Shown: positions 8,407 through 42,358 of the stretch, piece by piece | How positions within the stretch are numbered: position 1 is the first letter of the stretch | How the letters are laid out: each line of letters opens with the position of its first letter | Origin: Methanobrevibacter sp. TLL-48-HuF1 | GTDB lineage: Archaea > Methanobacteriota > Methanobacteria > Methanobacteriales > Methanobacteriaceae | Length of the DNA: 64,000 nucleotides | Assembly: GCF_023617305.1 (NCBI RefSeq) | Contig: NZ_CP081485.1 | Location: forward strand, 62,001-126,000 | Direction of reading: 5' to 3' | Program-made: the position numbers and the translations under genes | Notes under the pieces: generated by a model | Told to the model about the DNA's origin: nothing | Databases searched by the model: none | What the model saw: only the letters and a program-made list of their open reading frames with translations

Positions 8407-8428
8407 TTTTAATCACTATTTAATCCAT

Positions 8429-9346: not shown

Positions 9347-9522
9347 GTTATCACGCTAATCAATTTTTATAGCAATTATTATGATATATCAAGTATTTAA
9401 ATGCTTTGTTGTAAAAAAGAACAATTTTTAAGGCTGAAATCAATATTTTAAAGTTAAATAAATATTATTTTTAATTTAAAATAAATATTGTTTATACTTT
9501 GTTAAATTGTTTTTTACTGGTT

Positions 9523-9570
9523 AAATTGTCTTTAAATTTAACAATAAGCTTTTATATTTCTTATTACCAA
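9523..9570 (+). promoter_or_regulatory. Duplicated promoter element of TPR genes
   Basis: The stretch aaattgtctttaaat ... aacaataagcttttatatttctt just upstream of the first TPR gene is repeated with few changes at 11373-11420, upstream of the third TPR gene. It includes a TATA-like tttatattt. The copies probably arose with duplication of the genes and suggest common control. Confidence 0.5.
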
Positions 9571-9594
9571 GATTAGAGTAGAGGTGTTTTAGAT

Positions 9595-10116: not shown

Positions 10117-10126
10117 GGTTAATAAT

Positions 10127-11371: not shown

Positions 11372-11372
11372 A

Positions 11373-11420
11373 AAATTGTCTTTAAATATAACAATAAGGT
11401 TTAATATTTCTTTATTTAAT
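11373..11420 (+). promoter_or_regulatory. Second copy of TPR-gene promoter element
   Basis: Near-identical to 9523-9570: aaattgtctttaaat, aacaataagg and taatatttcttt in the same order and spacing. It lies between the end of the 414-residue TPR gene and the next TPR gene. Confidence 0.5.
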
Positions 11421-11441
11421 AATTAAATAGGTGTGATGCAT

Positions 11442-12095: not shown

Positions 12096-12178
12096 CTATT
12101 TTATTTTTTTCATTATTGTATCTTATACGAAAAATAGTATGAAAATATAATAGGCTATAAAAATTGGGAGGTAAAACT

Positions 12179-13618: not shown

Positions 13619-13620
13619 AA

Positions 13621-15054: not shown

Positions 15055-15074
15055 TTTTATCAGCTTTTTCAAGT

Positions 15075-15170
15075 AGTTGGTTATTTTTTTGACCGACCTT
15101 TTATATATAGTTGGTTATTTTTTTGACCGACCTTTTATATACTGTTGGTTAAATTTTTTACCAGCTATAT
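15075..15170. repeat. 34-bp tandem repeat upstream of the ATPase gene
   Basis: The unit agttggttatttttttgacc + gaccttttatat occurs twice exactly and a third, partial time with period 34 bp (GTTGGTT at 15076, 15110, 15144). Each unit holds a rough dyad (GGTTA...TGACC) and, on the minus strand, a TATA box. Because it overlaps the promoter of the ATPase gene, autoregulatory binding is a reasonable inference. Confidence 0.7.
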
Positions 15171-15300
15171 AAAAGAACCAAATTAATATACATATTTATA
15201 ACTAATTAGTTACTTTTTAGATACATTTATATACTAGAATAATACAATATAACTATGTAATAACATAAGTTGTTATAAAAATATTAAAAAATTGATTTAA

Positions 15301-16185
15301 ATGACATTGCTATTAGGTAAAAAACAAGAATGTGGAAATATAACTATAGTTCCTATTTTAAATGATTCACCTTTGAAATTAGATATTTTAGATTTAACAA
15401 CAGGATTTAAAATGGGTCTTGTTGAAGTATCTGAGTGTGAACAAAGTACAGTTGGAACAATTATGGTTAAAAATAATGCTACCTCTCCATTACTTTTAGT
15501 AGATGGGGAAGAAGTAGCTGGAGCAAAACAGAACAGAATTATTGGACAAAGTATGTTAATTCCTCCGAATACCAGCATACCAATTCCAGTTAATTGCTCT
15601 GAACAGGGAAGGTGGAATTACAAATCTGAATTTAAACATTCAAATTATATGGCAAATTCAGAAACTCGATGCAGAAAAGCAGAATATAATATGGACAATT
15701 CAATAAGAGCTTCACAAGGTGCAGTATGGGATTCTATTGAAGACCTTCAAGTAAAAAGAAACAGTTTTTCCAAAACCTCTGCTTTAAGGGATAATTATGA
15801 AAAAATAGAAAAAACAAATGATGATTATTTGAAACACTTCGGGATTTATGATAATCAGGTTGGTGTAATAGCCAGGTTAGAAAATAAAGTAGGTTTGGAT
15901 GTATTTGCTAATCATAGTTTATATGAACAGTACAGTGATATGATTCTTAAAAGTTATATTATTGATGATGTTGGAAATAATTCACTTATAAAAGATGACT
16001 TTGACTTTGAGGCTGTTTTAGACAATATAAATGAAAAATATTTTAATAAAAGAAATACTGTTGGTTTAGGTCAGTCTTATTTCATCAAAACAAATAACGG
16101 ATCAGGAACCTCATTAATCTATGAAAATGAGTTGATACATGCTAATTTCTTTTATAATAACAGATTAAGAAACCTAAAACTGTAA
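15301..16185 (+). CDS. ARPP-1-like protein (copy A)
   Basis: A 294-residue protein resembling the ARPP-1 family, a domain that comparative genomics links to NAD+/ADP-ribose metabolism. Conserved elements are the start NITIVPIL, LVEVSE, the LLLVDGEEVAGAKQNRII stretch (residues 61-80), IPVNCSEQGRW, the FSKTSALRDNYE helix and the C-terminal HANFF. The exact reaction is unknown. A paralog lies at 18179-19102, on the other side of the nicotinamide phosphoribosyltransferase gene. TATA box acatttatata near 15222; no ribosome-binding site before the ATG. Confidence 0.65.
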   Translation: MTLLLGKKQECGNITIVPILNDSPLKLDILDLTTGFKMGLVEVSECEQSTVGTIMVKNNATSPLLLVDGEEVAGAKQNRIIGQSMLIPPNTSIPIPVNCSEQGRWNYKSEFKHSNYMANSETRCRKAEYNMDNSIRASQGAVWDSIEDLQVKRNSFSKTSALRDNYEKIEKTNDDYLKHFGIYDNQVGVIARLENKVGLDVFANHSLYEQYSDMILKSYIIDDVGNNSLIKDDFDFEAVLDNINEKYFNKRNTVGLGQSYFIKTNNGSGTSLIYENELIHANFFYNNRLRNLKL

Positions 16186-16339
16186 ATATATTGTATTGGC
16201 TCTTAAATTAAAAATATCACCTTTTACACGATAAAAACACTGGAAATTAAACATCACACCCCGCATAATATCTCCTACTTAAAAAGGGACAAACACGTAT
16301 CAAAAAAACCATCATTTTTACTTTTTTTAAATACTAATT

Positions 16340-31155: not shown

Positions 31156-31192
31156 GTTAAATTTTAATTGTATCTTTCATTAAGAAACATAC
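31156..31192 (-). repeat. Degenerate terminal repeat (R0)
   Basis: It has the same 37-bp length as the array repeat and matches it at both ends (GTtAAATTTTAATTGtATCTTT ... AAACATAC) but differs at about eight or nine positions, mostly in the 3' arm of the dyad. A decayed leader-distal repeat is a classic property of CRISPR arrays. Confidence 0.8.
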
Positions 31193-31265
31193 CCCAATGA
31201 TAACTCAGATTATATGATTGAGAAAGGATACATAAACATTGAAAAATAATATCATTACTTCTACT

Positions 31266-31535
31266 TTAAATCATTTCAAGTATACGAACTGGTTGCATAA
31301 GCAAACCTTCATCAGTGAATTCATTATCTGGACTTTTAGGATCATCATAATAATAACATGCACTTTCATATTCTCTTCTTATCATACCATTTTCCTTTTC
31401 TTCTTTTAGAAGATATCTTCTAAATTCCAAATCCTTGGGAGAATCAGCTTCTCCTAAAAATAATTCACTAACTCTTTTCTCAAATTCTTCATAAGTCATA
31501 GGGTATTTGGATTCATCAATAGTTTCAGATTTCAT
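31266..31535 (-). CDS. Insert 0: small acidic protein, possible immunity protein
   Basis: About 89 residues, strongly acidic (FEKRVSELFLGEADSPKDLE, YESACYYYDDPKSPDNEF). It follows the truncated C-terminus of another protein by 17 bp in the same direction, an arrangement like toxin then immunity gene in viral MuF loci. I infer this only from context and composition. ATG at 31535 chosen because AAGGA lies about 10 bp upstream; an ATG at 31544 is also in frame. It is complete within the first insert. Confidence 0.5.
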   Translation of the reverse strand: MKSETIDESKYPMTYEEFEKRVSELFLGEADSPKDLEFRRYLLKEEKENGMIRREYESACYYYDDPKSPDNEFTDEGLLMQPVRILEMI

Positions 31536-31552
31536 TATTATCATTCCTTACT

Positions 31553-31716
31553 TTACCGTGTTTGGTTTTCATCTCTGATTGTGTAAGCTTTAACATAAGC
31601 ATCATCACCAGTTACTGGAGAAATTGCTTCATAAAACTGTTCAGATTTCTCATATCTACTTTGTTTACCTGTATATTTAAAGAATATTACATGCTCTGCT
31701 TTATCTCTTTCTTTTA
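31553..31716 (-). pseudogene. Insert 0: C-terminal fragment cut by repeat
   Basis: The reading frame enters from the repeat at 31717 and gives about 54 residues (KAEHVIFFKYTGKQSRYEKS, EAISPVTGDDAYVKAYTIRD) before a TAA at 31553-31555. The 5' part is missing, exactly at the repeat border. The family is not recognised; position before a small acidic gene suggests the end of a toxin-like protein. Confidence 0.5.
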
Positions 31717-31753
31717 GTCAAATTTTAATTGCATCTTTTTGAAGCAAACATAC

Positions 31754-31854
31754 ATATTAGTGCTGCTGAAGAATTATTAAAATGGTATGATTTATTAGAA
31801 AAAGGAATTATAACTCCTGAAGAATTTGAAAAAAAGAAAAGAGAATTAATATGA
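31754..31854 (+). pseudogene. Insert 1: C-terminal SHOCT domain fragment
   Basis: Directly from the repeat border the frame reads SAAEELLKWYDLLEKGIITP, then EEFEKKKRELI and a stop. This is a complete SHOCT motif, the short C-terminal domain of many proteins. The rest of the gene is absent. It converges on the ion-channel gene with 2 bp between stops, so the insert spans a junction of two genes of the source genome. Confidence 0.7.
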
Positions 31855-31856
31855 AT

Positions 31857-32591
31857 TTAATTATTTTTCATTATAATCTCTTTTAATTCATCAATTTTAT
31901 TTTCTAATTTTTTATTTTCTTCTTTAAGTTCATCAATTTTACTATTCAAATCTTTTTCAGAATCATCAGTTATTTTACTCACATATATGGATGATATAGC
32001 TGCAGTTAATGTGCTGAAAAAAATAATTCCTAATAATATGACAAAATATGAAATTACTTTTCCTATTATTGAATGTGGAGTTATATCTCCATAACCAACA
32101 CTTGTTAATGTTACAATAATATACCAAAATGCATCAATTAAATTTGTAACTGAATCTTCAATAAATAATATAGCAATAGATGAAATTACAACAAATATTA
32201 TCACAACATATATCAATTTATCCAAGTTTGTTGATTTGATAAAATAAACAAATGAATGTCCCCATCCTTTTAAAAAGAGTAATACTCTGCTGAATCTTAT
32301 TAAACGTATTATTCTTATGAATCTGAACCATCTTAAGAAAAAATAGTCTAAAGGTATTATTGCGATAACAGTCAACCAGTTTTCTTTTAAAAATTGTTTT
32401 TTATCATTTGATTTATATAAGTTATATATAAAATCAATCCATAAAATGAAACAAACAAATAAATCAAAGTAAATAATTTTCTGCTCTACATGTTGAGAAA
32501 CATTGGAAAAAGTCAATATTAATAATAATATCATATCAATTATTACTAACAACAATACTGATGATTCAATTATTTTTTCTGTATATTTCAT
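31857..32591 (-). CDS. Insert 1: voltage-gated-type K+ channel, intact
   Basis: A 244-residue membrane protein with six predicted helices. An S4-like segment (RWFRFIRIIRLIRFSRVLLF) carries regularly spaced Arg, and the pore filter TLTSVGYGDITP near residue 165 is the K+ selectivity signature. A C-terminal coiled coil (about residues 215-244) could tetramerise it. The gene is complete, with 174 bp of upstream DNA before the next repeat, so it could be expressed from the array. It looks like host-type DNA rather than viral DNA. Confidence 0.8.
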   Translation of the reverse strand: MKYTEKIIESSVLLLVIIDMILLLILTFSNVSQHVEQKIIYFDLFVCFILWIDFIYNLYKSNDKKQFLKENWLTVIAIIPLDYFFLRWFRFIRIIRLIRFSRVLLFLKGWGHSFVYFIKSTNLDKLIYVVIIFVVISSIAILFIEDSVTNLIDAFWYIIVTLTSVGYGDITPHSIIGKVISYFVILLGIIFFSTLTAAISSIYVSKITDDSEKDLNSKIDELKEENKKLENKIDELKEIIMKNN

Positions 32592-32802
32592 GAAAATCTA
32601 TCTTTTTTAGTTAAAATATTTACTTTTAATTCCCGAATTATTAATAACAAAATCCAAATTAAGATTATTTCTAATTCTTTTTATCATTAATTCTATGTTA
32701 TATTTTTTATAGAATATAATTTTAAAGATTATATTATTAGTAAAAAAAAGTTAATTTGAGTATTAGTCAAATTTTAATTGCATCTTTTTGAAGCAAACAT
32801 AC

Positions 32803-32954
32803 CTCCAAAAGGAACAAAAGGGGCGGCTATTGATGGTGAGATAATAGGTAATGCTGGAACTGAATATGAATATTTATTAAATAAAAATCAAGAATATATT
32901 ACATTAAATGTAGATGAAAATTTAAGAATAATTGATATCTTGTTGGTGAATTAA
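32803..32954 (+). pseudogene. Insert 2: C-terminal fragment of ADP-ribosyltransferase-like toxin
   Basis: Directly after the repeat the frame reads PPKGTKGAAIDGEIIGNAGT, EYEYLLNKNQEYITL and ends ILLVN before TAA. PKGTKGA...E.E.LLN is the last conserved block of the ART/VIP2-like exoenzyme fold, with the E-x-E catalytic region (EYEYLLN). The start of the gene is cut away by the repeat. Such domains occur as C-terminal toxins of phage MuF proteins. Confidence 0.65.
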
Positions 32955-33353
32955 ATGGAAAATTTGAAGTCAAAATATATTGTTTTGTCATTTGTGAATC
33001 AAAAAAAAGAAGAATTAATTAATATACCTGATTTTTTACCATGGGGGATTTCTTTACAATTTAAAGATAATCCTACTAGATTAAAAATTATTGAAGAAAA
33101 TAATTTAAAAAGGGTATATGTATTAAAACATGTGAAACGTAATGAGTATGTTAAAATGCATAAAACTGATTTTTTCTTTCATGCTGAAGAATTAGTGAGG
33201 TTTGTTGAAAAGTATCCTCAATTTAAAGGAGTTCTCAAAGAAGAATTACTAAATAAGGATATCATAAACTATGAATCAATAACTGGTCTGAGTTTATTGG
33301 AGATTTTCAACAAAGAAGGTAAATACTTTGAAGATAAAATATATAATAAATAA
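32955..33353 (+). CDS. Insert 2: possible immunity protein, intact
   Basis: A 132-residue soluble protein of unknown family (MENLKSKYIVLSFVNQKKEE). Its ATG directly follows the stop codon of the ADP-ribosyltransferase-like fragment, so the two were coupled. Toxin followed at once by its antidote is the usual order, hence the tentative immunity assignment. The whole gene sits inside the insert. No catalytic motif seen. Confidence 0.55.
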   Translation: MENLKSKYIVLSFVNQKKEELINIPDFLPWGISLQFKDNPTRLKIIEENNLKRVYVLKHVKRNEYVKMHKTDFFFHAEELVRFVEKYPQFKGVLKEELLNKDIINYESITGLSLLEIFNKEGKYFEDKIYNK

Positions 33354-33383
33354 GAGGTGAGTTGAAATGTCATTAATTACTTT

Positions 33384-33436
33384 ATGGCAAAAAAACCTAT
33401 TGAAGAATATGTATTGCCTGATGGAAGCTTTGTTTG
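33384..33436 (+). pseudogene. Insert 2: gene start cut by the next repeat
   Basis: MAKKPIEEYVLPDGSFVW starts at an ATG about 20 bp after a GAGGTGAG motif and runs straight into the repeat at 33437. Another start at 33367 in a different frame is closer to the GAGGTGAG. Either way, a gene has been cut by the insert border. Confidence 0.4.
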
Positions 33437-33473
33437 GTCAAATTTTAATTGCATCTTTTTGAAGCAAACATAC

Positions 33474-33667
33474 ATATTGTTGAAAAAAGAATGAGCTATG
33501 AATATGATGTTAATCAATTAGATTATTGGCAACAAGAACGTTTGAGAGAAAAATTAACTGCTCAAGTTACTGAAGAAAATTTCAGAGAATATGAAGAAGG
33601 TATTTTAAATTTTTTCAATGATGAAAATGGTCTAAAATTATATGTTCATGATAAAAAAAGAGGATGA
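33474..33667 (+). pseudogene. Insert 3: 5'-truncated protein fragment
   Basis: The frame is open from the repeat border and ends at 33667: IVEKRMSYEYDVNQLDYWQQ, then RLREKLTAQVTEENFREYEE. A helical acidic protein end of unknown family. An internal ATG (33491) would allow a short product. It is followed 6 bp later by another small gene, as in the other inserts with small viral genes. Confidence 0.5.
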
Positions 33668-33673
33668 GCAAAT

Positions 33674-33982
33674 ATGACTTCAGTATTTTTTGGTATGAAA
33701 GAATTGTTATTTATTTCAATTTATGATGGTGAAAAATATTATACAGATAAATTTTCCATGGAAGAAGCTAAAAATTTTGATAATAATAAAAGATTTACTC
33801 TTCTAAGTCAAGGGTACGATGTTGAAACTTATGAAAAATTATTTTATGAGTTAAAAGAAGATATTCTTATTAAAAATAGATCTGCCAAAAATATTTGGGA
33901 GCGAGCTAAAATTGCGGAAGAATACTTACAGAAGAAAAAAGATCTTGCTAAAGAATATCTTAATGTGGAATGGAAATCATAA
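33674..33982 (+). CDS. Insert 3: small protein, intact, unknown
   Basis: A 102-residue protein (MTSVFFGMKELLFISIYDGE ... EEYLQKKKDLAKEYLNVEW). The N-terminal half looks beta-rich and the C-terminal half helical. Ribosome-binding site GAGGATGAG just before. A further gene begins at ATG 34002 (ATG ACT GAT) and is cut by the repeat after three codons. Possible immunity-type gene by context only. Confidence 0.5.
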   Translation: MTSVFFGMKELLFISIYDGEKYYTDKFSMEEAKNFDNNKRFTLLSQGYDVETYEKLFYELKEDILIKNRSAKNIWERAKIAEEYLQKKKDLAKEYLNVEWKS

Positions 33983-34047
33983 ATGATGTGAGGTTCACTA
34001 AATGACTGATGTCAAATTTTAATTGCATCTTTTTGAAGCAAACATAC

Positions 34048-34390
34048 TAAACTAAAAAAATCGGAGGTAATAAAAAAATGCATCAACAATAAAAAAAACT
34101 GATTTTTAATGTTTTAATGTACCGATGTAATAAATACTTGTAATAAATAGTAAGCTATGCGAGAACTCATATAAAATGTTTTAAAAGTTTGTAGACGTTA
34201 AATCTTCTTAATATTTTATTATTTCATCCATATAGAATAAATAAAAAAAAACATTTTTTTTTGAGGGTCTTCTTCATACTATACCGTGAGCAATTAGAAA
34301 CTTCTTTGAAAGGTGGGGTGAGGGTTAGATAAATGGTAAAAAGTGGGGTAAATTGGTAATTTACCTAGGTTAATTAATGTTTTTTTTCAT
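34048..34390. other. Insert 4: non-coding part
   Basis: About 340 bp without a gene. It has an orphan ribosome-binding site (ggaggt, near 34064) followed by a 4-codon frame, a G-rich stretch (ggtggggtgagggtt, about 34312-34326) and a hairpin GGTAAATT-ggt-AATTTACC (34347-34365) downstream of the gene at 34391, probably its terminator. Confidence 0.45.
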
Positions 34391-34891
34391 TTAAAAAATT
34401 CTTCTTAGGTATGAAAAATCTTCGCCTTCATCATAATCATCAGGTATGCTTTTACTGACATTGTTTTCCATGTGTTTTTCTGTGATGGTGTTTATATGTT
34501 CATCATAAATAATAACTCGCATGCCGCTTCCATGGTTATTGTCCATACCCCATCCATCATATGTGCCATCTCTTAGTTTGGATCCAAAATCGAATGTTAT
34601 TCTCATTCCATTATTGAAATAAATTTTTTCATTTTTCCAGTTATTGCCCTGGTTTTGATATCTGTTATTTTCATAACTTCTATCTACAAATGGGTTGGGT
34701 TCTATTAATTTTTCAATAACTTCACCATTTTTATCATATAATATGGATTTTCTGAAGTCTCCTTCTATTCTTTGTTGATTCCAGTCACAGACTCCATCAT
34801 CGTTTCGAGTACCATAATTTACAATTAATTTCATACCATTATCAAAATCAATAGTCTTACTTTTATCCAAACCCTCAGTATATACATGCAT
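34391..34891 (-). CDS. Insert 4: hypothetical protein with two similar halves
   Basis: A 166-residue protein with an internal duplication: KTIDFDNGMKLIVNYGTRND and EKIYFNNGMRITFDFGSKLR, each followed by an Asp/Gly/Trp-rich loop and a RKSILYD/MRVIIYD strand. All-beta folding is likely. A good GGAGGA ribosome-binding site precedes the ATG. The gene is complete, with only about 28 bp before the repeat at 34920. No family recognised. Confidence 0.55.
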   Translation of the reverse strand: MHVYTEGLDKSKTIDFDNGMKLIVNYGTRNDDGVCDWNQQRIEGDFRKSILYDKNGEVIEKLIEPNPFVDRSYENNRYQNQGNNWKNEKIYFNNGMRITFDFGSKLRDGTYDGWGMDNNHGSGMRVIIYDEHINTITEKHMENNVSKSIPDDYDEGEDFSYLRRIF

Positions 34892-34956
34892 AATTTAAAT
34901 CCTCCAGGATTTTTTTAGTGTCAAATTTTAATTGCATCTTTTTGAAGCAAACATAC

Positions 34957-35030
34957 CTTCTAAGTATTAATATTTCATTGTCTTTGTTTTTAACGATTCC
35001 TCTCATTGTAAGTCCATATGGTTTGTCCAT
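34957..35030 (-). pseudogene. Insert 5: N-terminal fragment of a Nudix hydrolase
   Basis: MDKPYGLTMRGIVKNKDNEI + LILRR matches the first strands of Nudix hydrolases (G.V.N..G.ILLLRR) and then stops at the repeat border. GGTGGA 7 bp before the ATG at 35030 supports this start. It is divergent from the acyltransferase fragment in the same insert, so this insert spans a divergent promoter of the source genome. Confidence 0.65.
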
Positions 35031-35192
35031 TTTAAATCCACCTGCTTTACTGTTTGCCACGGTGATATTTAATTATTTTGATTTATCTGTTATGTTCATT
35101 TTTAGTATCATTTCAAGAGTAATGTTTATAATATATTAAATTTTATAACTAATTATTAGTTAATAGTTCAACTTTAAAGAGGGTAAAGTTCA

Positions 35193-35485
35193 ATGGAAAT
35201 TGGTGAAAGGATAAGATATGTTGATCAATTAAGGGCAGTCAGTATACTTTTCTTAATTGCAATAAACGTAGCTATGGTTTTTAAGTATAAAAGTGTAGGA
35301 AATTTACAGGAATATGTTGTTTTTACGACTTTCGGATTCGGTGTTCCAATATTTCTCATGCTTTTAGGTTTGTTAATGATTGACAGGGATTACTCAGATA
35401 TTGAAACATTTATTAAAACGGATTTTCTAAGGATTTTCATTCCTTTTTTAATCTGGAATACATTACTGGCTTTACTTATGACGGC
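35193..35485 (+). pseudogene. Insert 5: N-terminal fragment of a membrane acyltransferase
   Basis: About 98 residues beginning MEIGERIRYVDQLRAVSILF. R-x-x-x-x-D-x-L-R-A-x-(S/A)-I is the start of the acyltransferase-3 family. Two or three membrane helices follow, and the frame is cut by the repeat at 35486. It continues by chance in frame through the repeat into the adhesin fragment of insert 6; that fusion should not be taken as a real gene. Ribosome-binding site AGAGGG upstream. Confidence 0.7.
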
Positions 35486-35522
35486 GTCAAATTTTAATTG
35501 CATCTTTTTGAAGCAAACATAC

Positions 35523-36021
35523 AAATATGATGTGTCTGCTTACTTCACAGGTCAAAATTATTATAAAGACTCATTTGCTTCAGCATCATTTAGTGTGAAT
35601 AAATTAAACCCAGTCCTTAGTATTAATGCTAGTTCTATTAACTGTGGCGAAGATGTTATTATTAATGTGTCTTCATCTGTATCTTCTATAGAAGTTGAAT
35701 TAGTTATTCGTTTAGACAATTCAAATTATTATAGATATGATTCTTTCTATATATATGGTCAAGAATCAAGAAAAATATCTGATTTGCCTGCAGGAAGTTA
35801 TTTGGTTCAATTTATTGCACCGGAAGACACTAAAAATAATAGAGCACAAACTACAGTTCGTTTCACAGTATCCAAATTAGCTTCTTCTGTTGCAGTTGAT
35901 GTTAAAGATATTGTTGTTGGTGAGGATGCTGTTATTGGTGTGTCTGTTCCAGGTATTGTTTCTGGTGTAGTTAATGTTACTGTTAATGATGAATCTTATG
36001 ATGTAGCTATTGTTGATGGTA
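35523..36021 (+). pseudogene. Insert 6: internal segment of an adhesin-like protein
   Basis: Open in one frame across the whole 499-bp insert: about 166 residues with Ig-like repeats (LSINASSINCGEDVIINVSS, VAVDVKDIVVGEDAVIGVSV, VVNVTVNDESYDVAIVDGS). The pattern is that of Methanobrevibacter adhesin-like proteins. Neither start nor stop is native. A piece of surface-protein gene thus forms a complete insert. Confidence 0.75.
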
Positions 36022-36094
36022 GTCAAATTTTAATTGCATCTTTTTGAAGCAAACATACTACCTTATAAATATAAACTAAAAGGAGGTGAACACA

Positions 36095-36262
36095 ATTATT
36101 GATTATACTGAAAGCATTTCCAAAGATAACGTATCTGAAATAATAGATATATTACTCAAATTTCAATTAAAAAAAGTAACTGCTAAAGATGAAATTTCTA
36201 TGGAAACAGAAGAAGCAATGAAAAATTTAATAAGATTAATAGAACTTAAATCTACTTATTAA
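36095..36262 (+). CDS. Insert 7: small helical protein, non-ATG start
   Basis: AGGAGGTGA (36080-36088), a near-perfect ribosome-binding site, is followed 6 bp later by ATT ATT GAT, a frame of 55 codons to the TAA at 36260-36262 ([20 protein letters not shown] ... [11 protein letters not shown]). No ATG or GTG lies in the right position, so an ATT start is inferred. The small helical product has no family. It converges on the next gene with an 11-bp overlap. Confidence 0.45.
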
Positions 36263-36449
36263 GTCCTTCAGCTAATTCTTTAATTGGGGAGTAATTTTCT
36301 CCAGTGATTTGAAATATTTTATTTTTTGTGTATTCATTAATAGCTTGTTTAGAATCAAATTTGAGTTCTACTCCTTTTTCAAGATATATTTTGTAGGTCC
36401 CATTGGTTCTAAGTACTATTGCTGGATACTTTTCTTCTTCAGATACCAT
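36252..36449 (-). CDS. Insert 7: small protein, unknown
   Basis: A 65-residue protein ([20 protein letters not shown] ... [10 protein letters not shown]). Beta-strand start and helical end. It is the last of three same-direction genes behind the JAMM-domain fragment, with GAGGTTAT before the ATG. No family recognised; viral accessory gene by context. Confidence 0.5.
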
Positions 36450-36466
36450 AATATAACCTCAAATAT

Positions 36467-36697
36467 TTAAAGTTTAGATTCATCTATAGTAATAGGATTA
36501 TCAGATGTACCAAACAAATCAGGTAAATCACCAGATTCTATACAATCTTCTTTCCATTCATAATATGCTTCGGGATCTTCCAACCATAACTTTTTAATGC
36601 GAGCTTTTTGCTCTTCATCAGTTAATGTTTTCATATATGCAACTTCACTAGCATTTCCAAGCATGCCATAACCCCCATCTAACATTCCATCATACAT
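36467..36697 (-). CDS. Insert 7: small acidic protein, homolog of one in insert 9
   Basis: A 76-residue acidic protein with the pattern DPEAYYEWKEDC...LPDLFGTSDNP. The protein at 38082-38345 has NPKAFAEWKEWC...LTDIFGTLEDP in the same place behind a JAMM-domain protein. The conserved order suggests that it neutralises or escorts the JAMM domain (inference). AGGAGAT ribosome-binding site before the ATG. Confidence 0.55.
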   Translation of the reverse strand: MYDGMLDGGYGMLGNASEVAYMKTLTDEEQKARIKKLWLEDPEAYYEWKEDCIESGDLPDLFGTSDNPITIDESKL

Positions 36698-36716
36698 ATT
36701 AATATATCTCCTTTTC

Positions 36717-37290
36717 TTATTTAATAAATATTACTTCCATGTCAAAATCAACTAACTTCTCTTGATACATCTTTACATACCTATCATTATGTTTCATCAC
36801 ATAATTTTCTAACTTCCTATCATAAAGACTTTTTTTAGTAGCATAAAACTCCCTCCAGTTAGGAGTGTCTCTTCTAAAATCATCAACCATCTTATCAACA
36901 ATACCCTTTGTTACTTTTTTAATTTCATTATATCTTTCTTTGTTTTTAGTTACATTATTGTTTTTTATGATTAATGTGCCTGATTTATTAGTTGATACTC
37001 CATTTGACACCCCACACTTAGTATATGCAATTAAATCTTTTGGAGATGGTAATGGTGAGGTGTTACCTGGATGATTATGTATTACAGTATGAATACCATT
37101 TTTTAATCCTTCTTTTTGTAGCCATTCTGGAAATGCTACTTTCACGGCATTACCATTAGTGAATGTATCTATTATTTCATCATTTAATTTTACTGAAGCA
37201 TATTCAGTATTTTCATAATGAATATCTTTTTTAAAGTTAGATAAATGGTTAAATAGATTGGTGATTTCTTCATCACTTAGTTTTCCTTGA
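36717..37290 (-). pseudogene. Insert 7: JAMM-domain C-terminal fragment of a viral protein
   Basis: About 190 residues, open from the repeat border. It carries a JAMM/MPN metalloprotease signature IHTVIHNHPGNTSPLPSPKD (H-x-H-P-x7-S-x2-D), which binds zinc. The same domain forms the C-terminus of the MuF protein in insert 9, so this is probably the tail of such a protein from another virus. The first codon of the open frame lies in the repeat, so the real start is lost. Confidence 0.65.
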
Positions 37291-37327
37291 GTCAAATTTT
37301 AATTGCATCTTTTTGAAGCAAACATAC

Positions 37328-37741
37328 ACATTATAACTATCAGATACATCATAAGTATTATTAGCATAAGTATAATCCATATTTACAGTATTTTTAGCAA
37401 CAGTACTTACACCAGTTTCAGAATCAATAATGGTTATATTATCATCTGTACTATTATCAAATTCCGGAGCATATGCTTTATACCTTAAACTAAGACTTGT
37501 ACCACTTAAATCTCCAGTAGCTTCTTTTAATTTTAAAATTATTTTTCCGCCAGTTTTATTACCGTCAGGTTTTTCAACAGTATATAAACTGGAATCTATG
37601 ATTCTTCCTTTGGAGTCATATAAAACCAGACTGCCCAAATACATTATATTAGATGGAAGTACATCTGCAATAGTGATATTTTCAATTTTTGCACCATTAG
37701 CTATGTTAATATTTACATAATACTCAAATGGGAAATTTGAA
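37328..37741 (-). pseudogene. Insert 8: internal segment of a DUF11-like surface protein
   Basis: The smallest insert (414 bp) is open in one minus-strand frame: YYVNINIANGAKIENITIAD, VLPSNIMYLGSLVLYDSKGR, GKIILKLKEATGDLSGTSLS. Alternating beta strands and the 'VLPSNI.YLGS' turn resemble DUF11/conserved-repeat adhesins of Methanobrevibacter. Neither end is native. The open frame continues by chance through the repeat at 37291. Confidence 0.7.
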
Positions 37742-37798
37742 GTCAAATTTTAATTGCATCTTTTTGAAGCAAACATACCTCAAAAAAAAAGAAAAAAA

Positions 37799-38140
37799 TT
37801 AAAGAATTTGTTTCAATTTATATGTAACTTTTTCATTATCTTCAATAGGATTATACTCAATAATCCTATTTAATATAACATGAATTGTCTCTTCAATATT
37901 GTTTTTAAGATTTTCTTTAAATTTTTTATCAAAACTAAACTTAATATTCTTCAATTCATTCCCATCTTCAGAAGAAATTTCCAAAGAACAAACATTTCTA
38001 TGTGTATCAATAATAATTAAATAATAATGATGTCTATTTAGGATTAATATAAAAGTATAAATAATATAAAAAAAGTAGGTTTTAGTCTTCAGCAAATAGT
38101 TTTTCTTCATCAAATTCTTTAGGATCTTCAAGAGTACCAA
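37799..38140 (-). CDS. Insert 9: hypothetical protein, start uncertain
   Basis: Up to 113 residues. The C-terminal 70 (IDTHRNVCSLEISSEDGNEL, KNIKFSFDKKFKENLKNNIE) look like a real soluble protein; the first 40 residues are hydrophobic and overlap the upstream gene by 59 bp. The true start may therefore be further downstream at a non-ATG codon. It ends 21 bp from the repeat at 37742. No family recognised. Confidence 0.4.
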   Translation of the reverse strand: MVLLKILKNLMKKNYLLKTKTYFFYIIYTFILILNRHHYYLIIIDTHRNVCSLEISSEDGNELKNIKFSFDKKFKENLKNNIEETIHVILNRIIEYNPIEDNEKVTYKLKQIL

Positions 38141-38345
38141 AAATATCAGTCAAAAGATGTACATACATACACCATTCTTTCCATTCAGCAAAAGCTTTAG
38201 GATTAGTCTTATACATCCCTCTCATATGCTCCATCTTTTCCTCCTCAGTTTCAAGGATTCTTATGTAAGCACTATGATCAGTGTTAAATGTCCCGTAACC
38301 AACACGACGACCCGCATCAAGACCATTAACTTCAAAGTATCTCAT
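38082..38345 (-). CDS. Insert 9: small acidic protein, homolog of one in insert 7
   Basis: An 87-residue acidic protein with NPKAFAEWKEWCMYVHLLTD + IFGTLEDP, matching the 76-residue protein of insert 7. It follows the MuF-JAMM gene by 15 bp with a GGAG ribosome-binding site (gaaggagtgttg). A dedicated partner of the JAMM-type toxin domain is the natural inference, not proved. Confidence 0.55.
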   Translation of the reverse strand: MRYFEVNGLDAGRRVGYGTFNTDHSAYIRILETEEEKMEHMRGMYKTNPKAFAEWKEWCMYVHLLTDIFGTLEDPKEFDEEKLFAED

Positions 38346-38360
38346 GAAACAACACTCCTT

Positions 38361-39995
38361 CTAATATAAAAATTCAATTTCAAAACCATAATCTGATAAT
38401 TCATCTTCATATAATTTTTTATATTTATTTTTATGTTCATTAACATATTTATCTCTTTCTTTAAAATATTTTAACTCTTCAGAAGTATATTCCTTAACAG
38501 GTTTACCCTCATACAAAGTAGGCGGAGGAACCATACCTGTATCAGTAGAAAAATGCTCTTTCATTTTATCTTCAATCTTTACACCAAGTTCATAGATTTC
38601 TTTATATTTGTCTTTATTTTGTGAAGATTTATTGTTTTTAAGAATAAAAGTACCTTCTTCATTTGTTACTAAACCATATTTTATTTCTAATGAAGTAAAA
38701 TAAGCTAAATCATCAGAAGAAGGTAATGGGGGGTTTGATTTTGGATGATTATGAATTAAATATAAAATACCTTTATCTTCCTTTGCAATTTCTAAAAAAG
38801 TAGTAGATAAAGCTACTTCTTTATTCGCCCCATTTGAAAAAATCCCTGATACAGTTCCTTTATTTGTTATTGCCCAACCATGCTCAATATTAATAAAATG
38901 AACATTCTTTTGAAAATTAAATAAATCCTCAGTTAAAATGCTTATAGTCTTTGAATCCATAAATCCTGAAAGTCTTTTTTCAAATTCTTCTTTAGATAAA
39001 GAATTTCTAATTCCTTTGTAATCATATTCCCATAAATCTTTTTCATTGTTTAATTTCCCATTTGAGAAAAGATTTCTTAAAATATTAAGTTCATCATTTG
39101 ATAATGGTGTTAAGTTAACTGTGTATGGTTCAACATCACTATCTCTACTATCCCACACACTCAAATAAGTACAACGGCAATTAGGGTGCAAAGGCAACAT
39201 ACTATCCTCATCCAAATCACTTATACGATGCACATTATCTTTTAAACCAGGATGATAAACCTTATCTTCACTTTTATTAAATAAGTAAGCATTATCCAAA
39301 CATAAACTACAAACATTACTATCTTCAGCAGTTAGAATAGTAACTTCAGTATAGCCTTCATTAACATAGGATTGTAAAATACCTGTGTTTTGTGCTCTGC
39401 TAACTTCTGTTTTAGCAATCATTACTGCTCTTTGTTTAGCACTTAAAGTACTACCTTCTAAAGGTTTTACTCCTAATTCAATTATTTTGTTAGCTAAACT
39501 ATATGGGTTTTCACCAGTAGCTACAGCTTGAGTAATTGTTTTTTTAACACTGCCTCGTAAATCATCACTTAATTTCTTTATTAAATGAAAATTGTATTGT
39601 CTTACAAAGTCTAATGCTTCCTTGTCAGTATCAGTGAATACGAGTTTCTGTTTAATGTCATTGTATCCTTTCTGTTTACCTAATTCATATACTCGTTCGA
39701 TTAAATCATCAACACTTTCATAGCTCTGCTCTAATAAATCATCCCATTCCATATCCAAACTTTGGAGTATTTCTTTTTGTCTTTGCATTTCCGCATAATA
39801 ATACTCTTTAGCCCGTGGTGATGATAACCACATTCTACTATGGTTTAATTGCTTGTCAAGTAAGTTACTTATCAAATTATAATATTCTTGTACACTTATG
39901 GGGTCTTTAGTTTTGTTTATACGGAATTCTTCCCATAAACCAGTACATGATAATAATAATTTATCTGTTTCTATCTGTTCACTTGTTTTAATCAT
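38361..39995 (-). CDS. Insert 9: MuF-type viral head protein with C-terminal JAMM domain
   Basis: A 544-residue intact gene. Residues about 130-285 are the phage Mu gpF-like minor head domain (AVMIAKTEVSRAQNTGILQS, SNVCSLCLDNA, MLPLHPNCRCTYLSV). The C-terminal part has the JAMM zinc signature ILYLIHNHPKSNPPLPSSDD near residue 415. MuF proteins with variable C-terminal enzymatic or toxin domains are known in tailed viruses. Its start overlaps the portal fragment by 8 bp, as in viral head operons. A virus segment of 2.6 kb therefore sits between two CRISPR-type repeats. Confidence 0.8.
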   Translation of the reverse strand: MIKTSEQIETDKLLLSCTGLWEEFRINKTKDPISVQEYYNLISNLLDKQLNHSRMWLSSPRAKEYYYAEMQRQKEILQSLDMEWDDLLEQSYESVDDLIERVYELGKQKGYNDIKQKLVFTDTDKEALDFVRQYNFHLIKKLSDDLRGSVKKTITQAVATGENPYSLANKIIELGVKPLEGSTLSAKQRAVMIAKTEVSRAQNTGILQSYVNEGYTEVTILTAEDSNVCSLCLDNAYLFNKSEDKVYHPGLKDNVHRISDLDEDSMLPLHPNCRCTYLSVWDSRDSDVEPYTVNLTPLSNDELNILRNLFSNGKLNNEKDLWEYDYKGIRNSLSKEEFEKRLSGFMDSKTISILTEDLFNFQKNVHFINIEHGWAITNKGTVSGIFSNGANKEVALSTTFLEIAKEDKGILYLIHNHPKSNPPLPSSDDLAYFTSLEIKYGLVTNEEGTFILKNNKSSQNKDKYKEIYELGVKIEDKMKEHFSTDTGMVPPPTLYEGKPVKEYTSEELKYFKERDKYVNEHKNKYKKLYEDELSDYGFEIEFLY

Positions 39996-40401
39996 ATTCT
40001 CGCCTTAACCTTTCCATAGTCAAAGCTTTTTGCAGACTTTTAACTTGTAAATCCACATTAGGACTCATGTTTAGGTTTTGGTTTAAAGGTAACTCACCCC
40101 AATCCACAGGATTCAAACCATAATCCAAACGAACCTCGTTAATAGATTTAACACCGTTCTTCAACTGAATATCCTCTATCTGAGCACGAGTCAACTTATT
40201 CTCCAAATCCATATGGTTATACTCAAAAACCTCTTTAAACCCAGACCTGCCTAATACTTTATTAAAAGCATTTTCAATAATCTTACAATCCCCGGACAAA
40301 GTATTATTAAAAGATTTTTCTTGACTATCCCCTGTACCACTACCTAAGTGTGCTGTTTCAACAATACCTATCACAGCAGGAGGCACTTGAAAACCAATTA
40401 A
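39988..40401 (-). pseudogene. Insert 9: C-terminal fragment of a viral portal protein
   Basis: About 137 residues from the repeat border: LIGFQVPPAVIGIVETAHLG, FEYNHMDLENKLTRAQIEDI, VRLDYGLNPVDWGELPLNQ. 'IN E.R...GL.P' and the position directly before MuF are typical of portal protein C-termini. The frame happens to be in phase with an ATG inside the repeat (MQLKFD), which could allow translation of a fragment. Confidence 0.7.
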
Positions 40402-40438
40402 GTCAAATTTTAATTGCATCTTTTTGAAGCAAACATAC

Positions 40439-40921
40439 CTAATGCTAATGTTGAGGTTATAATTCATATAGCTGATAATACACAGGTAGCTGCATTTTTA
40501 ACTCCTAGAATTATTATTAATGAAATAAAAACTCATTTTGCTAATCAGTTAGATGAAATTGATATGATTTTAGTTCCAGGTTTAATAAAGAAAGGAACCA
40601 GGGAAATAACAAAAGAATTGGGAATTCCTACTTTTAAAGGTTCAACTGACGGAGCTGATTTGGCTATGGTTTTAAATTTAATTGATCAAATTGAATTGTC
40701 TGAAGATAAACCTGCAGATAAACTAATTGAAGAGGAAAAAAGAAAAGAAGCTTTAAAATTCATTGATGATTTTGAAAATGATGAAAAAACCATTGAAAAA
40801 TTATTGGAAAAACCTAATAATATTCTGGTTGGAAATCTCCCGGTAGGTGAAGATTTTCCAATGAGAGTATTGTCTGAAATAGCTAACGCCCCATTTTTAT
40901 CAAAAGAAGCTTTAATTCATA
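40439..40921 (+). pseudogene. Insert 10: internal fragment of a dihydropteroate-synthase-related protein
   Basis: Open across the insert, about 160 residues: [60 protein letters not shown]. This matches the N-terminal part of the methanogen dihydropteroate-synthase-related protein (pterin/methanopterin pathway). It lies next to the leader, so it would be the most recent acquisition, and it looks like chromosomal methanogen DNA, not viral DNA. Confidence 0.7.
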
Positions 40922-40958
40922 GTCAAATTTTAATTGCATCTTTTTGAAGCAAACATAC

Positions 40959-41072
40959 TTTATTTTTATTTTCTTTTTTATACTATTTAAACACATGTTA
41001 ATTCTTTTTTGAAAAGTATTATTAGGAAAGTATAAAAGTATTACAAAAATAAGGGGGCTTTCCTAAAATTAT
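40959..41072 (-). promoter_or_regulatory. Candidate leader of the array
   Basis: About 114 bp, very AT-rich, between the last repeat and the cas1 stop codon. It contains TTAGGAAAG (41022-41030) inverted as CTTTCCTAA (41058-41066), which could be a cas1 terminator or a protein-binding site, and two AAGTATTA boxes (near 41015 and 41033). A tatttaaacaca element near 40983 could be part of a promoter. Confidence 0.5.
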
Positions 41073-42077
41073 TTACCAGTTTAAATAAAACCCACTATAT
41101 TCTGTATTATTAAGTAATGAATTTACTAATTTTTTTGTTTGATTTTCAATGATTTTAGCATAAGTTACTTTTTCATTTTCAAAAGTTAAATCACTATGAA
41201 TTTTGGCCATTATTTCGCCGGCTAATAAGTTTCTTGATTCTAATTTTAATGAATTGTTTCTTTTATCAATGTTTGTTTCGTTGATTTGGTTGGTGTTTAT
41301 TAATTTGAACACTGTTTTATCAACGATTTGTTGTCTAAATTCTTCTATTAAATCAAAAATTAAGCTTTGTCTTCTTTTTAAATCTGCATGCAATAATCCG
41401 CAGTATGGATCAAGCCCTAATGTTACAATATTTTTTGCAATTTCTGAAGCAAGTATTGCATATCCATAATTTAGCATAGAATTTACAACATCATTTTCTG
41501 GTTTTTGATTTCTGTTTTTGAAATTGATTTCATCAGGCAGCAGCAAACTTACTGCTTCCCAGTAATTAACAGAAGCTATTCCTTCAAATCCCATTATTTT
41601 ATTTTTAGATGTGAATATATTATCATTTAGACTTATTTTAAAGTTTTTGAAATCTTTTATGTTTTGTTTAATTTTATTTTCAATTATTTTAACTTCTTTG
41701 ATTTTTTTATTTTTATTTAATGTTTTAATTGTTGATTTTTGGTTTTTCATTTTAGATGTTATAAATTCTTTTGAAATTAAAAGCCCTTTATGATTTTCAC
41801 TAGCTTGATATTGTAATTTTTTTAAAACAATATTGTTCTGATTTGGAGACTCTAAAATATAGTTGATTTGACCAAAGTAGTTGATACTAATTAATTTAAT
41901 ATTGTTTTTTGCCATAAGATTTAATGCATCGAATGTTATATGGCCTTTAGCCATTATAGTTATATCTGATACTTTGTTTGCAGAAATTCTATATATCTCA
42001 TTGTCTTTTTCCATGACTACTATTTGATTGTCTTTTTTTCTTAGTGTTTTATTGTAGCCATCAATTATCAATTTCAT
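41073..42077 (-). CDS. cas1: Cas1 integrase
   Basis: A 334-residue Cas1. The N-terminal beta domain (MKLIIDGYNKTLRKKDNQIV) is followed by a helical catalytic domain. The metal ligands appear present: Glu in MGFEGIASVNYWEAV, His in GLDPYCGLLHADLKRR, and Asp in SLIFDLIEEFRQQIVDK. Cas1 with Cas2 inserts new DNA at the leader-repeat junction and duplicates the repeat. Here the only adjacent array has kilobase-scale inserts. cas2 overlaps its start by 4 bp, and the operon points toward the array. No effector genes accompany it. Confidence 0.9.
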   Translation of the reverse strand: MKLIIDGYNKTLRKKDNQIVVMEKDNEIYRISANKVSDITIMAKGHITFDALNLMAKNNIKLISINYFGQINYILESPNQNNIVLKKLQYQASENHKGLLISKEFITSKMKNQKSTIKTLNKNKKIKEVKIIENKIKQNIKDFKNFKISLNDNIFTSKNKIMGFEGIASVNYWEAVSLLLPDEINFKNRNQKPENDVVNSMLNYGYAILASEIAKNIVTLGLDPYCGLLHADLKRRQSLIFDLIEEFRQQIVDKTVFKLINTNQINETNIDKRNNSLKLESRNLLAGEIMAKIHSDLTFENEKVTYAKIIENQTKKLVNSLLNNTEYSGFYLNW

Positions 42078-42358
42078 AATATCTTATATTTTTCTTCTTC
42101 TAGATTTATTTCTTTTCCAAAATATGTGATTTTATTATAACATGTCCCACATATTGGAATTATAATTATAAACCCGTTTTCATCAGGTATTTTTGATATT
42201 TTTTCTTTTAAAATAAGTATTTCATTATTATCCAAATTTCCAATATATGTTTTTTCACTTATTTGTTTAAATGCATTGTAGTTTAAGATTCTTTTAAGTT
42301 TTAAAATATCTTTTTTGAATTTTAAATTAAATAAAACTAGAATTTTCAATTTTATCAC
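42074..42358 (-). CDS. cas2: Cas2-like protein, divergent
   Basis: A 94-residue protein in the position and with the layout of Cas2: first strand IKLKILVLFNL, helix KDILKLKRILNYNAFKQ, then ISEKTYIGNLDNNE, and GFIIIIPIC..CYNKITYFGK. The Asp that normally follows the first strand is Asn here (LVLFNL), so nuclease activity is unlikely; Cas2 serves mainly as the dimer that positions Cas1. Its divergence could matter for the unusual insert length (inference). Start overlaps nothing upstream. Confidence 0.75.
   Translation of the reverse strand: MIKLKILVLFNLKFKKDILKLKRILNYNAFKQISEKTYIGNLDNNEILILKEKISKIPDENGFIIIIPICGTCYNKITYFGKEINLEEEKYKIL

What the first reader, a model, noticed from the sequence alone, without database searches (positions are those of the whole stretch)
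31156..42358. Cas1-Cas2 array whose 'spacers' are 0.4-2.6 kb DNA segments
Seen directly: eleven identical 37-bp direct repeats plus a degenerate twelfth, all in one orientation, with inserts of 414 to 2623 bp, next to an AT-rich leader and a cas2-cas1 operon. Established: Cas1-Cas2 normally inserts short spacers of about 30-40 bp and duplicates the first repeat; casposon Cas1 can insert kilobase DNA. Inference: here Cas1-Cas2 integrates long duplex DNA and duplicates a CRISPR-type repeat, giving a giant-spacer archive. I know of no standard CRISPR class with such inserts.
Basis: partly seen in the sequence, partly recalled or inferred. Interest (0 to 1): 0.97.

Follow-up and report, generated by a model that had tools for sequence, protein, structure and literature searches.

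The report
Cas1-Cas2 array of gene-sized inserts
Gut methanogens carry a CRISPR-type array whose "spacers" are gene-sized stretches of captured DNA, and many of them hold an intact small gene that sits beside a toxin-type gene in the microbes' viruses, which suggests a bank of protective genes rather than a bank of RNA guides.

Summary
In detail: eleven identical 37-nt repeats plus a degenerate end repeat, inserts of 414-2623 bp, a 114-nt leader and cas1-cas2. Four inserts are 99-100% copies of intact chromosomal loci, cut exactly at the repeat edges. The orthologous M. smithii array shares no insert, and its three leader-proximal repeats share a derived base, pointing to leader-end growth by repeat copying. 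I found 26 such arrays (100 inserts, 123-4299 bp) in 25 Methanobacteriaceae genomes; their Cas1s form one 100/100 group among Cas1s with ordinary spacers. Content is not random: a small-protein family that follows the MuF toxin-type gene in two named viruses and four proviral loci is in 19 of 100 inserts (12 of 74 without arrays found through that family), against 3.0 (2.3) expected from random viral DNA. Best reading: a Cas1-Cas2 pair freed of length control captures gene-sized DNA, and selection keeps immunity genes against virus-borne toxins, as in Bacteroidales rAID clusters. Capture is well supported; integration chemistry, expression and immunity function are inferred. My paper searches listed no description.

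The parts
41073..42077 (-). cas1 (334 aa); E165, H230 and E245 conserved (their catalytic role is recalled)
   Evidence: Pfam Cas_Cas1 5.8e-70; alignment to PDB 4n06; H230 and E245 invariant, E165 nearly invariant in A1
42074..42358 (-). cas2 (94 aa)
   Evidence: Pfam CRISPR_Cas2 4.6e-7; NCBIfam cas2 5.8e-6
40959..41072 (-). leader, 114 nt between cas1 stop and first repeat; in relatives 111-116 or 197-200 nt
40922..40958 (+). leader-proximal 37-nt repeat
40439..40921 (.). insert i1 (483 bp), 100% copy of chromosome G000:C1 near 684625-685110, gene fragment
40402..40438 (+). 37-nt repeat
37779..40401 (.). insert i2 (2623 bp), viral: portal end, full MuF protein with JAB-like C-terminus, ImmJ gene
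38361..39995 (-). MuF-type protein (544 aa) in i2
   Evidence: Pfam Phage_Mu_F 2.2e-8; PHROGs head proteins
38082..38345 (-). ImmJ-family small ORF (87 aa) in i2
37742..37778 (+). 37-nt repeat
37328..37741 (.). insert i3 (414 bp), 99.3% copy of C1 near 1799374-1799791
37291..37327 (+). 37-nt repeat
36059..37290 (.). insert i4 (1232 bp): 5'-truncated JAB-like toxin tail (36717-37289 -) plus complete ImmJ ORF (36467-36697 -)
   Evidence: JAB match below Pfam cut-off
36022..36058 (+). 37-nt repeat
35523..36021 (.). insert i5 (499 bp), 99.8% copy of C1:1382517-1383015
35486..35522 (+). 37-nt repeat
34957..35485 (.). insert i6 (529 bp), 99.2% copy of C1 near 921250-921781
34920..34956 (+). 37-nt repeat
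34048..34919 (.). insert i7 (872 bp) with complete Imm7-family ORF 34391-34891(-), a family seen in 5 arrays
34011..34047 (+). 37-nt repeat
33474..34010 (.). insert i8 (537 bp): truncated ORF 33476-33667(+) then complete ORF 33674-33982(+)
33437..33473 (+). 37-nt repeat
32803..33436 (.). insert i9 (634 bp): ADP-ribosyltransferase-like tail (32805-32954 +) then complete Imm1 ORF (32955-33353 +)
32766..32802 (+). 37-nt repeat
31754..32765 (.). insert i10 (1012 bp) with complete ion-channel gene 31857-32591(-)
31717..31753 (+). 37-nt repeat
31193..31716 (.). insert i11 (524 bp), 87.5% to a related copy at C1:218745-219275; truncated ORF 31553-31714(-) then complete Imm11 ORF 31266-31544(-)
31156..31192 (+). 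degenerate terminal repeat (8 mismatches), leader-distal end

Best explanation
This is a gene-capturing array. A Cas1-Cas2 pair that no longer enforces spacer length integrates double-stranded DNA of about 0.1-4 kb, taken from viruses and from the cell itself, at the leader-repeat junction and copies the 37-nt repeat each time (inferred from comparative sequence, well supported). Capture samples broadly (self fragments, assorted viral genes). Inserts that bring an intact immunity gene against a toxin carried by viral MuF head proteins (ADP-ribosyltransferase- or JAB-like C-termini) are kept by selection, so the array becomes a bank of protein-coding protection, not of RNA guides (inferred from content). 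Not shown: the integration reaction, how inserts are transcribed, that the small genes are immunity genes, and that they protect the cell.
For: Capture: 4 of 11 window inserts are full-length 99-100% copies of intact chromosomal loci, ends exactly at the repeat; 2 of 5 inserts of G101 likewise at 98.8% and 97.7%. Growth: leader-proximal repeats of G045 share a derived base; mismatch to the first repeat grows with distance from the leader in 10 arrays (0 of 5000 permutations as high), and still when repeats over 7 or over 5 mismatches are dropped (7 arrays, 0 of 1500; 6 arrays, 2 of 1500). Machinery: the 20 giant-array Cas1s in the tree are one side of a 100/100 branch, nested among 26 Cas1s with ordinary arrays; active-site residues conserved. 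Content: Imm1 family in 19 of 100 inserts, 12 of 26 arrays, with 3.0 expected if every insert were random DNA of a 38.8-kb virus (P 6e-10); leaving out the arrays and the one insert found through Imm1 itself, 12 of 74 against 2.3 (P 6e-6); also leaving out inserts bounded by very degenerate repeats, 11 of 64 against 2.1 (P 1e-5). Imm1 follows the MuF gene directly in vir080 and MSTV1 and in four proviral loci outside arrays that also carry portal, terminase or capsid genes (L315-L318). Imm1 cores complete in 17 of 19 inserts against 10.2 expected (P 2.7e-4), 12 of 12 against 7.0 in the unbiased set (P 6e-4). Three more recurrent small-ORF families; with toxin tails 35 of 100 inserts, 23 of 74 in the unbiased set. 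Other conflict genes in inserts: a complete MmeI-type IIG enzyme, an HTH plus IrrE-like pair, PIN, ParE-like.
Against: No expression, toxin or protection data. Insert ORFs lie on both strands relative to the leader, so one leader promoter cannot serve all; I tested no promoters. 65 of 100 inserts have no recognised toxin/immunity content, and leader-nearest inserts are not significantly poorer in it (6 of 23 against 18 of 52, Fisher p 0.59), so a selection sieve with age is not shown. If Imm1 ORFs that run off the insert's 3' end count as incomplete, completeness falls to 14 of 19 (P 0.04) and 10 of 12 (P 0.05); whole copies are also easier to detect. In the one pair where both could be compared with changes, the truncated toxin tail is more constrained than Imm1 (dN/dS 0.23 against 0.53), and between window i2 and L069_i3 the JAB tail has no change where ImmJ has five. 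The Imm1 profile was built mostly from array members. JAB matches are below Pfam's cut-off. No protospacer motif was shown (A next to the distal end in 5 of 7 donors, p 0.06).
Confidence: 0.65

Rival explanations
1. Unselected by-product: a Cas1-Cas2 pair without length control captures DNA at random or from a capture hotspot, and the immunity-gene excess reflects where capture happens in viral DNA (for example near the packaged end, as the MuF gene lies in the packaging module). The array has no function.
For: Self fragments without complete genes sit near the leader (window i1, i3, i5). Other viral regions are also captured: integrase, tail genes, head protease. Some arrays hold repeated overlapping captures of one region (L088 i1-i3, L069 i2-i3). 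dN/dS gives no sign that Imm1 is more constrained than the toxin tail.
Against: No insert of 100 matched a terminase large subunit of four methanogen viruses by phmmer (E 1e-3), where 4.9 would be expected if all were random viral DNA. Imm1 cores are intact more often than placement alone predicts, though only marginally under the stricter count. The cas operon and leader are kept in many species.
Confidence: 0.18
2. Giant spacers as nucleic-acid memory: inserts are transcribed into long RNAs or used as homologous DNA to recognise viruses, as in CRISPR but with long guides.
For: Architecture is CRISPR-like (leader, repeats, terminal degenerate repeat); content includes viral DNA.
Against: 4 of 11 window inserts are near-identical to the cell's own chromosome, which would be self-targeting. 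G000 has one Cas1 and no Cas3 over the curated cut-off; Cas3 is over cut-off in 2 of 8 giant-array genomes. A guide memory would not favour one protein family. Type III effectors were not searched, and the Cas6 search was uninformative.
Confidence: 0.1
3. A mobile 37-bp repeat, recombination between arrays, or an assembly artefact made the pattern; Cas1-Cas2 is only a neighbour.
For: Only weak: the G011 array has just a short, broken cas1 piece on its contig, so an array can stand without an intact cas1 beside it.
Against: Intact donor loci elsewhere; independent assemblies with their own repeats; near-fixed cas1-repeat distance; ordinary arrays beside sister Cas1s; no match of the repeats on the opposite strand within 9 mismatches other than 3 exact-type ones.
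Confidence: 0.02
4. General integron-like platform: the array collects any useful gene, with immunity genes only one cargo among many.
For: Complete short-chain dehydrogenase in the G045 array, ion channel in the window, type IIG enzyme, multi-gene inserts.
Against: Among the Pfam families listed (25 of 126) none matched more than 4 of 126 insert ORFs, ADPrib_exo_Tox being first, while Imm1 is in 19 of 100 inserts. Donor ends are ordinary gene sequence, without a cassette site.
Confidence: 0.05

Closest known systems
CRISPR array plus Cas1-Cas2 adaptation module (nearest ordinary relatives: Methanobacteriaceae loci such as L102-L104, L107, L108, L179-L186)
   Same: Cas1 and Cas2 families, leader, 37-nt direct repeats, terminal degenerate repeat, leader-end growth inferred
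   Different: Inserts 123-4299 bp instead of about 35-40 nt; protein-coding content; no Cas3 over cut-off in 6 of 8 genomes examined
rAID, recombinase-associated acquired interbacterial defence clusters of Bacteroidales (PMC12247911, abstract and passages seen)
   Same: Array of short orphan immunity genes separated by conserved motifs, next to an integrase gene
   Different: rAID has a predicted tyrosine recombinase and co-oriented genes against T6SS effectors; here Cas1-Cas2, CRISPR-type repeats, mixed orientation, viral MuF-type toxins, archaea
Casposons and casposases (PMC6977970, passages seen)
   Same: Cas1 homologue; a casposon is long DNA placed by it
   Different: Casposon Cas1 moves its own element with terminal inverted repeats and 14-15 bp target duplications; here a CRISPR Cas1 with Cas2, 37-nt repeats, and captured DNA whose donor ends show no shared terminal repeat
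Integrons (recalled)
   Same: Array of gene cassettes added at one end by a chromosomal integrase
   Different: Different integrase family; inserts are fragments cut at arbitrary points in genes, not cassettes with attC sites
MuF polymorphic toxins of temperate phages (PMC5576092, abstract seen)
   Same: MuF domain in the packaging module with a variable toxin C-terminus
   Different: Here in Methanobacteriaceae viruses, and as captured, mostly 5'-truncated copies in a host array

Membership tests
CRISPR array | Identical direct repeats of 20-50 bp with non-repetitive inserts, one orientation | tested here: met
CRISPR array | Spacers of uniform short length (about 25-75 nt, recalled) | tested here: not met
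   of 101 gaps between accepted repeats 100 are 123-4299 bp and one, in G011, is 32 nt; gaps under 60 nt were set aside by my filter and this was the only one
CRISPR array | Leader and polarised growth by repeat duplication | tested here: met
   (comparative evidence, not observed growth)
CRISPR-Cas immunity | Effector module / crRNA use | tested here: inconclusive
   Cas3 over cut-off in 2 of 8 genomes, not in G000; Cas6 search found 0 of 5 but also missed G045, whose species is reported to have a type I-B protein; type III not searched
Cas1 integrase | Catalytic E/H/E residues (recalled) | tested here: met
Casposon | Terminal inverted repeats on the moved DNA, Cas1 without Cas2 | tested here: not met
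   cas2 present; donor ends share no terminal repeat
Integron | Tyrosine integrase and attC sites | tested here: not met
   the adjacent integrase is Cas1; donor ends are ordinary gene sequence
rAID-like immunity bank | Recurrent orphan immunity genes | tested here: met
   Imm1 in 19 of 100 inserts, 12 arrays; the immunity role is inferred from position behind MuF genes
rAID-like immunity bank | Protection against the cognate toxin | not testable with these tools
   needs bench work
MuF polymorphic toxin | MuF domain plus toxin C-terminus in one protein | tested here: inconclusive
   L081:11374-12888 has Phage_Mu_F 7.6e-12 over cut-off, but its ADPrib_exo_Tox match (3.9e-4, 20.2 bits) is below the 23.4-bit cut-off; the cut-off is passed in a truncated insert ORF, L096_i2 (1e-7)

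The most novel reading that the evidence does not exclude
A third kind of heritable adaptive immunity: a CRISPR-derived Cas1-Cas2 integrase that acquires whole immunity genes from viral toxin loci and stores them, with chromosomal by-catch, in a leader-ordered array, so that the memory acts as protein rather than as RNA guide.
Probability: 0.6. Interest if true: 0.98.

Novelty: categorically new. Interest (0 to 1): 0.94.

Why it matters
The casposase work (PMC6977970, passages seen) argues that CRISPR adaptation had to gain a rule that only short spacers of set length are integrated. Here one Cas1-Cas2 lineage appears to have dropped that rule and become a gene collector, which makes the spacer-length ruler directly testable by comparing sister enzymes within one genus. 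If the immunity reading holds, it adds a protein-based adaptive memory to prokaryotic defence and implies that toxins carried in virus particles are a real selective force on dominant human-gut archaea. A natural integrase that places kilobase DNA at a defined leader-repeat site could also be a useful tool.

Tried and rejected
Rejected ideas: (1) mobile 37-bp element in contiguous DNA - donors are intact elsewhere. (2) Assembly artefact - independent genomes agree. (3) Capture hotspot at the viral packaged end as the sole cause - no terminase insert among 100. (4) A PAM - A at the distal flank of 5 of 7 donors, p 0.06, not claimed. (5) An age sieve of content - not significant. Led nowhere: viral-contig scans for the MuF protein and for two small ORFs found nothing; phage searches with window i9's and L069_i4's small proteins found nothing; viral contigs Cas1 hits were only distant fragments; the Cas6 search was uninformative; the AlphaFold model of Imm1 had mean pLDDT 61.9, so I ran no fold search. 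Rows dropped before counts: L072 (irregular repeats), one 32-nt gap in G011, spurious hits in L078 and the downstream hit in L090; the L084_i1 toxin match was set aside as chance, giving 35 rather than 36 inserts with toxin/immunity content. Three arrays (25 inserts: G064 second array, G070, G011) and insert L069_i5 were found by following Imm1, which inflates the Imm1 count; the counts without them are given. Six accepted arrays have only two repeats, one insert each (L076, L080, L084, L087, L091, L094). Of 35 giant-group cas1 loci examined, 23 have an array, 1 is doubtful, 6 run off a contig and 5 show none (two of these, L100 and L105, with cas1 in two pieces).


Full report
OBSERVATION. 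The array is as described: eleven identical 37-nt repeats, a degenerate twelfth at the leader-distal end, eleven inserts of 414-2623 bp, a 114-nt leader and a cas2-cas1 operon reading towards the array. The repeat occurs nowhere else in the 1.95-Mb single-contig genome. I number inserts from the leader (i1 = 40439-40921, i11 = 31193-31716).

WHERE THE INSERTS COME FROM. Searching the window's own genome with the array returned full-length matches for i1 (100%), i5 (99.8%), i3 (99.3%) and i6 (99.2%). In these four the donor locus is intact and uninterrupted, and insert and donor part company exactly at the repeat edge. They are copies placed in the array, not old contiguous DNA split by a repeat. 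Insert i11 has a related full-length copy at 87.5% elsewhere in the chromosome. In a second species (G101) the two leader-nearest of five inserts are 98.8% and 97.7% copies of its own chromosome. In G045, G046 and G042 no full-length self donor was found; these searches score at most 40 candidates per genome. Other inserts are viral: i2 carries the end of a portal gene and a full MuF protein, and parts of it match the Methanobacteriales virus vir080.

GROWTH AT THE LEADER. G045 has a contig of 1,853,160 bases. A table in PMC12281867 (passage seen) gives 1.85 Mbp in one contig for its first M. smithii column, and a small-gene hit at 1,711,122 falls inside the MSTV1 provirus interval given for M. 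smithii PS in PMC12134362 (passage seen), so I take G045 to be that strain. Its orthologous locus is 96% identical across leader and cas genes but shares no insert at the same place. Its three leader-proximal repeats carry one base change that the older repeats lack, as expected if the leader-proximal repeat is copied at each addition. Of 16 arrays of three or more repeats tested, ten vary, and in them mismatch to the first repeat rises with distance from the leader (0 of 5000 permutations as high). Keeping only repeats with at most 7 or 5 mismatches gives 0 of 1500 (7 arrays) and 2 of 1500 (6 arrays). The opposite strand of the same DNA holds 3 matches within 3 mismatches and no more up to 9, so the degenerate repeats are not chance. 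Growth itself was not watched.

HOW WIDESPREAD. A Cas1 search of 150 genomes of the order found matches in 80. I fetched 40 loci: 34 of the group at about 50% identity or more and 6 of the 39-43% group, 5 of which show ordinary arrays. With the window, 35 giant-group loci were examined: 23 have an array of 37-nt repeats with long inserts (six of them only two repeats), 1 is doubtful, 6 reach a contig end and 5 show none. Three more arrays came from following one gene family. The final set is 26 arrays in 25 genomes with 100 inserts of 123-4299 bp, median 743. Over 22 arrays the first repeat stands 111-116 or 197-200 nt from the cas1 stop, except L077, which reads 149 because its match ended early. 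In 80 named-genome loci (the best of 499), repeats in three or more copies outside the group have ordinary spacings, apart from one 1490-nt gap beside ordinary ones in L185; a few two-copy 24-26-mers there lie about 1-1.9 kb apart and were not pursued. The named records at 52% identity or more are Methanobrevibacter and Methanosphaera. In a tree of 46 Cas1s (20 giant, 26 ordinary) the giant group is one side of a 100/100 branch, nested in Methanobacteriaceae Cas1s with ordinary arrays. The residues recalled as catalytic are conserved.

CONTENT IS NOT RANDOM. Many inserts have the same make-up: the 5'-truncated end of a larger ORF followed by a complete small ORF. A profile started from nine such small ORFs converged on one family, Imm1, which includes the gene directly behind the MuF gene in vir080 and in MSTV1. 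Imm1 occurs in 19 of 100 inserts and 12 of 26 arrays; 3.0 would be expected if every insert were random DNA of a 38.8-kb virus. Because three arrays and one insert were found through Imm1, I recounted without them: 12 of 74 inserts in 9 of 23 arrays, 2.3 expected, P 6e-6; and 11 of 64 without inserts bounded by very degenerate repeats, 2.1 expected, P 1e-5. A second family, ImmJ, is in 9 inserts of 4 arrays, Imm11 in 3 inserts of 3 arrays and Imm7 in 5 inserts of 5 arrays. With toxin tails, 35 of 100 inserts are of this kind, 23 of 74 in the reduced set. Toxin evidence: ADP-ribosyltransferase Pfam matches at 1e-7 (L096_i2, over cut-off), 8.9e-5 (L094_i1) and 3.9e-4 (L081_i3, with a MuF domain at 7.6e-12), the last two below cut-off; JAB matches are weak. 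In 138 genomes Imm1 matched in 67. By my count of that listing, in the 25 array genomes 15 of 26 hits at E 1e-10 or better lie in arrays (12 of 22 without the three genomes whose arrays were found this way); arrays are roughly 0.2% of that DNA. The profile was built mainly from array members, so this is an upper view. Of 30 loci around hits, 10 have a toxin homologue: 4 are array copies and 6 lie outside known arrays. Larger stretches show that L315, L316, L317 and L318 carry portal, terminase or capsid genes and a MuF gene directly before Imm1, with no array repeats, as in proviruses; L314 looks like a remnant, and L305 has a portal match only.

SELECTION OR HOTSPOT. Phmmer with ORFs of 60 or more residues of four methanogen viruses places inserts on the MuF-Imm region most often, but also on integrase, tail, head-protease and other genes, and never on the terminase large subunit (0 of 100; 4.9 expected if all were random viral DNA). 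A packaged-end hotspot should include terminase. Imm1 cores are complete in 17 of 19 inserts where a simple placement model expects 10.2 (P 2.7e-4), and in 12 of 12 against 7.0 in the reduced set (P 6e-4). If ORFs that run off the insert are called incomplete, this drops to 14 of 19 (P 0.04) and 10 of 12 (P 0.05). Core lengths were rounded, and whole copies are easier to detect. Against selection: toxin/immunity content is not rarer in the leader-nearest insert (6 of 23 against 18 of 52, p 0.59). dN/dS is 0.53 and 0.65 for Imm1 pairs and 0.15-0.28 for ImmJ and Imm11 pairs, while the truncated toxin tail of the L098 pair is lower (0.23) than its Imm1 (0.53), and the JAB tail shared by window i2 and L069_i3 has no change; these values mix viral and host history.

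MECHANISM. Shown by sequence: copies of donor DNA, exact ends, a Cas1 group of its own, near-fixed leader distance. Inferred: Cas1-Cas2 does the integration; the repeat is duplicated at the leader; length control is lost; selection keeps immunity genes. Unknown: how ORFs on both strands are expressed, what makes the DNA ends, and whether a motif guides capture. A type I effector seems not to be needed: 2 of 8 giant-array genomes have Cas3 over the curated cut-off, and the window genome has a single Cas1 match. Type III was not searched.

COMPARISON AND NOVELTY. It works like rAID clusters (orphan immunity genes beside an integrase; PMC12247911, abstract and passages seen) but with CRISPR machinery. 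It is CRISPR-like in array form but fails the spacer-length criterion. It is not a casposon (PMC6977970, passages seen) or an integron. Ten full-text searches of the open library, six of them aimed at this system, listed no paper that I recognised as describing such arrays; I saw the listings and did not open most of the papers. That library lacks most subscription journals and the bioRxiv collection, so an earlier description cannot be excluded.

Noticed in passing
L309 (G011:C11), 997-16199: Longest array: 18 repeats with inserts of about 0.1-3 kb; the only giant-type cas1 match listed on that contig is a short, broken piece. One gap is only 32 nt, ordinary spacer size.
   Followed up: partly
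L306 (G064:C27), 4966-13646: Second giant array beyond the first, with the same kind of repeat in the opposite orientation.
   Followed up: partly
L076:891-3584(-); L082:7778-9399; L077:2841-3245 and 7715-8023: Inserts with other conflict genes: a complete MmeI-type IIG enzyme, an HTH plus IrrE-like pair with a third gene, a PIN-domain gene and a ParE-like gene.
   Followed up: partly
L069:14122-14931: The G045 array insert nearest the leader carries a complete short-chain dehydrogenase gene.
   Followed up: no
L155:10022-10420 and L154:13751-14276: Copies of two of the small-gene families also sit singly in chromosomes, outside arrays, between ordinary host genes.
   Followed up: partly
L088 inserts i1-i3: Three neighbouring inserts hold overlapping copies of the same DNA, partly in opposite orientation.
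   Followed up: no
L081 15544-15832 (insert i5): A roughly 290-bp dispersed repeat found at eight other listed places of that genome at 97-99% identity.
   Followed up: no
MN737622 32187-32501: Methanobacterium virus PhiF3 carries a gene annotated as Csx16-family.
   Followed up: no
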